Positions 16,917 to 18,039 of a DNA stretch of 50,207 nt are shown piece by piece. The position numbers and the translations under genes were made by a program. The notes under the pieces were generated by a model. That model worked only from the letters and a program-made list of their open reading frames with translations. It was not told the DNA's origin and did no database searches. Source of the DNA: a virus; IMG/VR virus record IMGVR_UViG_3300005253_000377, positions 1-50,207 of that record; one strand, written 5' to 3'. Position 1 is the stretch's first letter; each line of letters begins with the position of its first letter.

Positions 16917-17825
16917 CTATTTCTTATAATAAGGTGTCAACTCACCCTCACCAGCTATCGGTAAACTCTTTGCCCAGCTTGGCTTAACACAAAATATATC
17001 AATCGCTTTTTCTAAAGATTTCTCTGCATTTTTTTCCTGCAATAGCACCACAACCTCATCATGACTGCGAAGAATCACAGACACATCAGCAGCGTCCAAT
17101 CGCAGCACACCCTCAACGAATATGTCACGAGCAATCGCTTGGACCACGTTCTCAGTAATCGAGCCACCCCAGAGATAATACTTCTTGTACTTGAGCTTAC
17201 CACCACGTCTATCTTTGACGATCCGGGCCTGGGGGTACTTCAGACAACGAGTGGATGGTAGCTGGATATTAACCATACCGTTGTCGTTCCAAAAGCGGAA
17301 TATAAAATGATCAACCATAAGCTTTTTAGCAAGCTCTGAACAAGGTTCTTTCTTTTTTGAAAGCCACTGATGATTTAAAGTATATGTTGTTATTTGATTA
17401 GGATACTTCACCACCCACCTGAAAGCTTTCTCAATGTTGGTCCAGAACTTAGAAATTTTAGGATATTTTTTATGATATAGTTTGCCTAATTTTTGAATAA
17501 AAACAAAATTATACTCGCCAGAATCAAAATGCGGTTTAAGATCAGCATTTGATAAACAGCGATCAAAGAACTTCTGATCTCCCATTCCATAACCGCGTCC
17601 GAGGATAGCATCTTTACCAAATCCCCTTCGGATAGTAAGAATTTTCCCGATCTCTTTTGGATCAGTTTTGCGTGCTTTACGTACAGGTACGCCGAATAAA
17701 GTAGTAGCAAACTCACTATATATATCTTCTCCATCTGCAAATCCTTTCAATAGGTCGTCTTGCCCGGCAATCCAACTGAGGATGCGAGCTTCTATCTGAG
17801 CTAAGTCTATAATACCGAGGATCAT
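16917..17825 (-). CDS. polA: Family A DNA polymerase, C-terminal half (fingers/palm)
   Basis: 302 residues from the ATG at 17825, which overlaps the zinc-finger ORF stop (ATGA); GGA lies about 10 nt upstream. An upstream in-frame ATG at 17840 is possible but lacks a ribosome site. Motif A is IIDLAQIEARILSW with the catalytic Asp at residue 7. Motif B is RRGFGKDAILGRGYG near 66-80. Motif C is RSHDEVVV near 250 with its catalytic Asp. These define the polymerase active site. The exonuclease and thumb are encoded separately at 18477-19652. Read together, exon 1 ending LLKAPKG continues directly into MILGIIDLAQIEAR, the order in intact enzymes, so the gene was split just before motif A. Confidence 0.9.
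   Translation of the reverse strand: MILGIIDLAQIEARILSWIAGQDDLLKGFADGEDIYSEFATTLFGVPVRKARKTDPKEIGKILTIRRGFGKDAILGRGYGMGDQKFFDRCLSNADLKPHFDSGEYNFVFIQKLGKLYHKKYPKISKFWTNIEKAFRWVVKYPNQITTYTLNHQWLSKKKEPCSELAKKLMVDHFIFRFWNDNGMVNIQLPSTRCLKYPQARIVKDRRGGKLKYKKYYLWGGSITENVVQAIARDIFVEGVLRLDAADVSVILRSHDEVVVLLQEKNAEKSLEKAIDIFCVKPSWAKSLPIAGEGELTPYYKK
17803..17825. repeat. 23-bp direct repeat, copy 2 (start of polymerase exon 2)
   Basis: On the minus strand this reads ATGATCCTCGGTATTATAG and then ACTT. The same 23 bp, with one mismatch, occur at 18017-18039, 214 bp away. The copy here is the functional start of the C-terminal polymerase gene and contains the motif A start MILGIIDL. Confidence 0.95.
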
Positions 17826-17998
17826 ATTTTGTTTTTCCATAAATGATTAAAAAATCTTTTTATACGAACTAACCATTTTTTGTCGTAACATTCTACACAT
17901 AAGTATCCAGCAATATGAGCGAGCATAGCAAGACTCCATCGTTCATAATAACCACCCAAGCCTTTGTGGAGTTCTTTTTCACACCACCAACACTTCAT
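17822..17998 (-). CDS. Small zinc-finger protein inserted in split polymerase locus
   Basis: 58 residues beginning MKCWWCEKELHKGLGG, with a second CxxC in GYLCVECYDKKW, so a zinc ribbon is predicted. The C-terminus is basic (RIKRFFNHLWKNK). It lies between the HNH gene and polymerase exon 2; start and stop each form an ATGA overlap with flanking polymerase-derived sequence. It is bracketed by the 23-bp repeat and looks like a second insertion at the same polymerase site. No nuclease motif is visible. Similar Cys-rich small ORFs are common in this phage. Confidence 0.6.
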   Translation of the reverse strand: MKCWWCEKELHKGLGGYYERWSLAMLAHIAGYLCVECYDKKWLVRIKRFFNHLWKNKI

Positions 17999-18039
17999 TT
18001 CGGTGCTCTCAATTTAAAGTCTATAATTCCGAGGATCAT
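17995..18039 (-). pseudogene. Relic mini-ORF of polymerase junction
   Basis: A 14-codon frame, MILGIIDFKLRAPK then TGA. Its first half repeats the start of polymerase exon 2, and its end (RAPK, ATGA) imitates the end of exon 1 (KAPKG, ATGA). It is therefore a scar carrying both polymerase boundaries. Translation is unproven. Confidence 0.6.
18017..18039. repeat. 23-bp direct repeat, copy 1 (relic)
   Basis: Matches 17803-17825 at 22 of 23 positions. It follows the HNH stop by three bases. After the repeat, the sequence diverges from the polymerase and leads into the zinc-finger ORF. Confidence 0.95.

What the first reader, a model, noticed from the sequence alone, without database searches (positions are those of the whole stretch)
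17803..18039. Duplicated polymerase junction brackets the second insert
The first 23 bp of polymerase exon 2 occur twice (22/23 identical), 214 bp apart, on either side of the zinc-finger ORF. The relic frame between (MILGIIDFKLRAPK, stop in ATGA) begins like exon 2 and ends like exon 1 (KAPKG). This implies two successive insertions at one hotspot, or recombination between phages carrying different inserts at this site.
Basis: partly seen in the sequence, partly recalled or inferred. Interest (0 to 1): 0.75.

Follow-up and report, generated by a model that had tools for sequence, protein, structure and literature searches.

The report
Split phage polymerase with swappable inserts
A phage copies its DNA with a polymerase whose gene is broken in two at one loop; related phages are broken at the same place but carry different genes, or none, in the gap, and here two different inserts seem to have been stitched together, leaving a short fossil of both halves of the gene between them.

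Summary
The repeat is real: 17803-17825 and 18017-18039 match at 22/23, 214 bp apart, flanking the zinc-finger ORF. The 15-codon relic (MILGIIDFKLRAPK*) is there too. No intron or intein was found, so "exons" is wrong. The gene is a family-A DNA polymerase split into two cistrons: E1 (3'-5' exonuclease and thumb) and E2 (motifs A, B, C). The break lies in the loop just before motif A. Most relatives are unbroken. L002 and L058/L062 are split at this loop with no insert, L055 with a DNA methyltransferase, and the window with HNH plus zinc finger. A distant polymerase lineage, including cultured phages MEP401, MEP402 and Alcaligenes phage QDWS535, is split at the same loop with no gene, one gene or about 3.6 kb of genes between the halves. 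So the loop is a recurrent fission point and cargo site, and the split enzyme very likely works. Its E2-like half is secure. Its E1-like half rests on a six-residue match that is not significant in DNA. Neither an HNH-only nor a zinc-finger-only allele was found.

The parts
18477..19652 (-). E1: N-terminal polymerase cistron, 391 aa, 3'-5' exonuclease plus thumb, ending ..IRNLLKAPKG* in an ATGA overlap with the HNH ORF
   Evidence: ORF; PF01612 2.6e-6; phrog_17 DNA polymerase 1e-19
18043..18480 (-). HNH endonuclease ORF, 145 aa, first insert
   Evidence: phrog_374 4.1e-26 and phrog_3377 2.9e-24, HNH endonuclease; 54-55% identical copy directly behind the polymerase gene of L009
17995..18039 (-). 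Relic frame of 15 codons, MILGIIDFKLRAPK*, stop overlapping the zinc-finger start (ATGA)
   Evidence: sequence; peptide match test
18017..18039 (-). Upstream copy of the first 23 nt of E2 (22/23 identical)
   Evidence: repeat D1
17995..18016 (-). Probable remnant of a divergent E1 3' end (..KLRAPK + TGA)
   Evidence: best of 616 window ATGA sites by family matrix; DNA-level similarity not significant
17822..17998 (-). Small CxxC..CxxC ORF, 58 aa, second insert; its stop TGA overlaps the inner ATG of E2
   Evidence: ORF; weak phrog_7346 1.4e-4; no homologue; low-confidence fold, pLDDT 66
17803..17825 (-). Start of E2 proper (ATGATCCTCGGTATTATAGACTT), downstream copy of the repeat
   Evidence: repeat D1
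16917..17840 (-). E2: C-terminal polymerase cistron, 307 aa from the outer ATG or 302 aa from the inner ATG, with motifs A, B and C
   Evidence: PF00476 3.6e-10; invariant D12, R72, K76, Y84-G85, H260-D261-E262; aligns to Taq and Klenow from motif A on

Best explanation
The locus is a two-cistron ('gene-in-pieces') family-A DNA polymerase. E1 carries the exonuclease and thumb and E2 the catalytic palm and fingers; they are made as separate polypeptides that assemble. The break lies in the loop just before motif A, which tolerates fission and recurs. In this phage group the boundary holds interchangeable genes: none, a methyltransferase, or HNH plus zinc finger. The duplicated junction is a recombination scar. 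An allele E1-HNH-E2 and an allele E1'-ZnF-E2' were joined end to end, probably by imperfect homing or break repair, leaving the first 23 nt of one E2 and the last few codons of another E1 between the inserts. The 15-codon relic may still let ribosomes pass from HNH to zinc finger to E2 by stop-start coupling. Shown: the split, its recurrence, the allele series and the repeat. Inferred: assembly of the two proteins, translational coupling, allele fusion, and involvement of the HNH enzyme in the joining.
For: Repeat and relic. Exonuclease and polymerase domains on separate ORFs. Catalytic residues kept. No intron found. It is the only family A, B or C polymerase hit in the record. Relatives unbroken at this site. 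Split alleles: L002 with no insert, L055 with a phrog_757 methyltransferase, L058/L062 with no insert and identical over 2045 nt. Window and L002 are sisters at 100/99; all four split alleles as one clade is rejected, AU p 0.0145, while window+L002+L055 is not, p 0.12. A second polymerase lineage is split at the same loop, with two cultured members carrying a 78-aa ORF, one cultured member with no insert, and two metagenomic members with one gene or about 3.6 kb of genes. Insert loss that leaves the gene split is seen at another site, L014 against L004.
Against: No HNH-only or zinc-finger-only allele was found to show the two parents. The E1-like tail is six residues and not supported at DNA level. 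E2 and the relic's E2 piece are 96% identical while the two E1 tails differ at 6 of 15 nt, which a simple join of two equally diverged alleles does not predict; same-allele origin or later gene conversion must be invoked. ATGA overlaps are common in this genome (10 of 53 same-strand neighbours), so the overlaps alone are not special. No read data were available to exclude an assembly chimera.
Confidence: 0.62

Rival explanations
1. Successive insertion: one element entered the split site first and the second then inserted beside it, duplicating the E2 start by staggered break repair, like a target-site duplication. The KLRAPK tail is simply the ZnF leader and resembles E1 by chance.
For: The repeat brackets the ZnF segment exactly. 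The E1-like tail is not significant in DNA. The 96% identity of the two E2 starts fits duplication within one allele better than fusion of two alleles.
Against: The peptide match sits exactly at the ATGA where E1 ends and is the best of 616 window sites. The other single-insert junctions (L055, MEP401) carry no duplicated polymerase piece.
Confidence: 0.25
2. Both inserts lie in a spliced element (group I intron or intein), so the polymerase is restored as one chain.
For: Phage polymerase genes often hold introns or inteins; one relative, L019, has an in-frame intein in this gene.
Against: No Rfam intron. The inserts are almost wholly coding with their own starts and stops, and no in-frame intein is present. 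Two relatives are split with no insert at all.
Confidence: 0.04
3. Assembly or sequencing artefact: two phage populations collapsed into a chimeric junction.
For: The window is a single metagenomic virus record.
Against: The repeat copies are not identical, both insert ORFs are open, all junctions keep overlapping or near-abutting starts and stops, and relatives are split at the same loop, one of them in two separate assemblies and others in cultured isolates.
Confidence: 0.07

Closest known systems
Aeromonas phage Aeh1 nrdA split by the homing endonuclease mobE (genes-in-pieces ribonucleotide reductase; reviewed in PMC2988022)
   Same: An HNH endonuclease gene lies between two halves of an essential replication gene. 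The halves are separate proteins, no intron is involved, and relatives are unbroken.
   Different: Different gene (family-A polymerase). Here a second, non-nuclease insert and a polymerase-derived scar lie between the halves, and sister alleles are split with other cargo or none. Activity of the split enzyme is not shown here.
Split gene 43 (family-B polymerase) of Aeromonas phages 25 and 44RR (PMC2988022)
   Same: A replicative phage polymerase in two cistrons, with one relative carrying an endonuclease in the gap and the other only a spacer. The review raises the same question, whether the nuclease entered an already split gene.
   Different: Family B and not family A, so a different fold position. 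No duplicated junction is described in the review passages read.
OM43 phages MEP401 and MEP402 (PMC10580990)
   Same: Family-A polymerase split at the same loop before motif A with one small ORF between the parts. These are cultured, replicating phages.
   Different: Distant polymerase lineage; the insert is an unknown 78-aa protein, there is no HNH and no repeat was seen. The authors suggested an intron; the passages read do not mention a recurrent position.
T4 mobA / gene 60 topoisomerase split (PMC2988022)
   Same: A mobile endonuclease split a replication gene into separate cistrons.
   Different: T4 gene 60 also has a 50-nt ribosomal bypass (own knowledge). Here the gap holds two coding ORFs and no bypass is needed.

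Membership tests
Genes-in-pieces created by a free-standing homing endonuclease | Endonuclease ORF sits between two parts of a gene that is contiguous in relatives | tested here: met
   HNH between E1 and E2; about 20 relatives contiguous at this site
Genes-in-pieces created by a free-standing homing endonuclease | Insert is not a self-splicing intron or an in-frame intein | tested here: met
   No Rfam intron; E1 ends at its own stop and E2 has its own start
Genes-in-pieces created by a free-standing homing endonuclease | Insertion of the endonuclease was the event that split the gene | tested here: inconclusive
   Sister allele L002 and L058/L062 are split without insert; insert loss or an earlier split both fit
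Genes-in-pieces created by a free-standing homing endonuclease | The two polypeptides form a working enzyme | not testable with these tools
   Indirect only: catalytic residues kept, only polymerase hit in the record, viable phages with the same split
Genes-in-pieces created by a free-standing homing endonuclease | HNH protein cuts insert-free alleles and mobilises its gene | not testable with these tools
   HNH relatives occur at other places in relatives, up to several copies per genome
Group I / group II intron | Conserved ribozyme core in the insert | tested here: not met
   cmscan with permissive threshold finds none in 16800-19700
Intein | Insert open in frame with both flanks, with splicing blocks | tested here: not met
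   E1 stops at 18477 and E2 lies in a separate ORF
DNA polymerase family A | Motifs A, B, C and the 3'-5' exonuclease domain | tested here: met
   PF00476 and PF01612 over cut-off; catalytic columns invariant
HNH homing endonuclease | Match to HNH endonuclease families | tested here: met
   phrog_374, phrog_3377, phrog_2081; no Pfam hit

The most novel reading that the evidence does not exclude
The loop before motif A of phage family-A polymerases is a general, repeatedly used fission point. Once split, the two-subunit polymerase is stable over deep divergence and its cistron boundary becomes a docking site where phages exchange accessory genes (nucleases, methyltransferases, unknown ORFs), occasionally stacking two and leaving allele-fusion scars such as the one in this window.
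Probability: 0.5. Interest if true: 0.7.

Novelty: new variant of a known kind. Interest (0 to 1): 0.55.

Why it matters
Split replicative genes are usually explained as a side effect of homing endonuclease insertion. Here the same polymerase loop is broken in at least two distant lineages, with different cargo or none, including cultured phages. That makes an open question testable: does the nuclease split the gene, or does it settle in a gene already split? It also points to a naturally tolerated two-piece family-A polymerase, and the scar in this window records how two inserts can end up at one site.

Tried and rejected
Close relatives by E1 and by the zinc-finger ORF gave nothing. Genome contigs gave no relative of E2. 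An Rfam search for introns was negative. The zinc-finger fold is low confidence and was not searched further. Ribosomal bypass as in T4 gene 60 was considered because E1 ends GGA-TGA, but rejected: the gap is about 640 nt of coding sequence. For L002, a single-base error could also restore one frame, so L002 alone is weak; L058/L062, QDWS535 and MEP401/402 carry the argument. A special role for ATGA overlaps was dropped, since 10 of 53 same-strand neighbours in the window have them. PHROG_10285 as a marker of split polymerases was dropped because it also matches unbroken ones.

Full report
What is there. On the minus strand, in order: E1 (19652-18477), an HNH ORF (18480-18043), a 15-codon relic (18039-17995), a 58-aa CxxC..CxxC ORF (17998-17822) and E2 (17840-16917). 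E1 holds the 3'-5' exonuclease domain and E2 the family-A polymerase domain.

The relic. It reads ATGATCCTCGGAATTATAGACTT, the start of E2, then TAAATTGAGAGCACCGAAATGA. The second half reads KLRAPK before the stop, and E1 ends LLKAPKG; in relatives this place reads L-L-x-A-P-x-G. Scored against a matrix of 20 family ends, KLRAPK is the only one of 616 window ATGA sites at or above its own score, and 1 of 17,714 ATGA sites in the fetched loci reaches it. The DNA similarity to the E1 end is not significant. So the E2 half is certain and the E1 half is probable.

No splicing. Rfam finds no intron, E1 and E2 have their own stop and start, and relatives exist that are split without insert. E2 keeps motif A, the R-K-YG of motif B, and HDE of motif C as invariant columns. 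It aligns to Taq and Klenow from motif A onward, so the break lies just before the motif A strand. No other family A, B or C polymerase was hit in the record.

Allele series. Scans of viral contigs gave about 26 non-redundant members of this polymerase group. Most are contiguous at this site. Four are split there: the window; L002..GLLVA* then MSNVLVIVDLAQIEAR in an ATGA overlap with no insert; L055..GLLKA*, a 185-aa DNA methyltransferase (phrog_757, 1.7e-67), then MSNNIFIIADYAQIEAR; and L058/L062..ELIITE* then MNESMIIADSAQIEAR, no insert, identical in two assemblies over 2045 nt. The ATGA pattern scans were biased towards split alleles, so 4 of 26 is not a frequency. In a tree of E1+E2, window and L002 are sisters at 100/99. 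The four need three changes, and one clade of all four is rejected (AU p 0.0145), whereas window+L002+L055 is not (p 0.12). Several origins, or one split with later re-fusions, both remain possible.

A second lineage. Cultured OM43 phages MEP401 and MEP402 were reported to have a split polymerase with a small unknown ORF, and an intron was suggested (PMC10580990). Their break falls at the same loop: gp13 ends ..IKTLFLSRYGE and gp15 starts MILNADAKALEW. Their relatives are split there too: Alcaligenes phage vB_Af_QDWS535 with no insert, ctOsX528 with one gene, and ct2os315 with about 3.6 kb and seven genes including a methyltransferase and a stomatin-like protein between E1 and E2. A more distant relative, CRP-235, is contiguous. 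Viable phages with this split as their reported DNA polymerase are the best evidence that a two-piece enzyme works.

Other sites in the same gene. L004 has an endonuclease-VII-type ORF splitting E1 near residue 244. L014 is split at the same place with only the two ends of such an ORF left. So insert loss that leaves the gene split does happen, which also fits L002.

Mechanism. The simplest account of polymerase sequence lying between two inserts is fusion of two occupied alleles: E1-HNH-[E2 start] joined to [E1' end]-ZnF-E2'. Break repair started by the HNH enzyme and completed with only one homologous arm would do this; that step is inferred. One detail does not fit neatly: the two E2 starts are 96% identical while the two E1 ends match at only 9 of 15 nt. 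Either E2 and its copy come from one allele, as in the successive-insertion rival, or gene conversion homogenised them. The relic ATG lies three bases after the HNH stop codon and has an AGG six bases upstream, and the relic stop overlaps the ZnF start, so it could keep ribosomes coupled along the chain; this is inference, and ATGA overlaps are common in the genome.

Comparison. This works like the Aeh1 mobE/nrdA gene-in-pieces and resembles the split gene 43 of Aeromonas phages, for which the same order-of-events question was raised (PMC2988022). It differs in the enzyme family, in the recurrence at one loop with varied or no cargo, and in the composite insert with a scar. I file it as a new variant of a known kind.

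Noticed in passing
L019 3239-4000 / 3316-3963; L039 4198-4827; L220 (Salmonella Jerseyvirus vB_SalS-S10) 2246-2989: Three polymerase inteins at different insertion points each contain an HNH ORF in a different reading frame of the intein-coding DNA. A comparable hidden, out-of-frame HNH in a phage methylase was reported in 2025 (PMC11855218, abstract seen).
   Followed up: partly
L004 3175-3606; L014 3520-3580: Second split site in the same polymerase, near E1 residue 244: L004 has an endonuclease-VII-type ORF overlapping both halves, L014 only its remnant ends with the gene still split.
   Followed up: partly
L246/L250 (MW202796, ct2os315) record 6923-12392: The two polymerase halves are about 3.6 kb apart, with seven genes between them including a cytosine methyltransferase and a stomatin-like protein.
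   Followed up: partly
L009 4821-5288 and other places in the same record: HNH relatives of the window enzyme occur in several copies per genome in some relatives, one directly behind an unbroken polymerase gene.
   Followed up: no
L247 (MW202697) 2189-2260: E2 start appears frameshifted at an A5 run just after motif A; sequencing error or slippage not resolved.
   Followed up: no
window 16581-16599 and 18755-18773: 19-nt inverted repeat, 89% complementary, arms 2155 nt apart, spanning most of the split polymerase locus; possibly chance.
   Followed up: no
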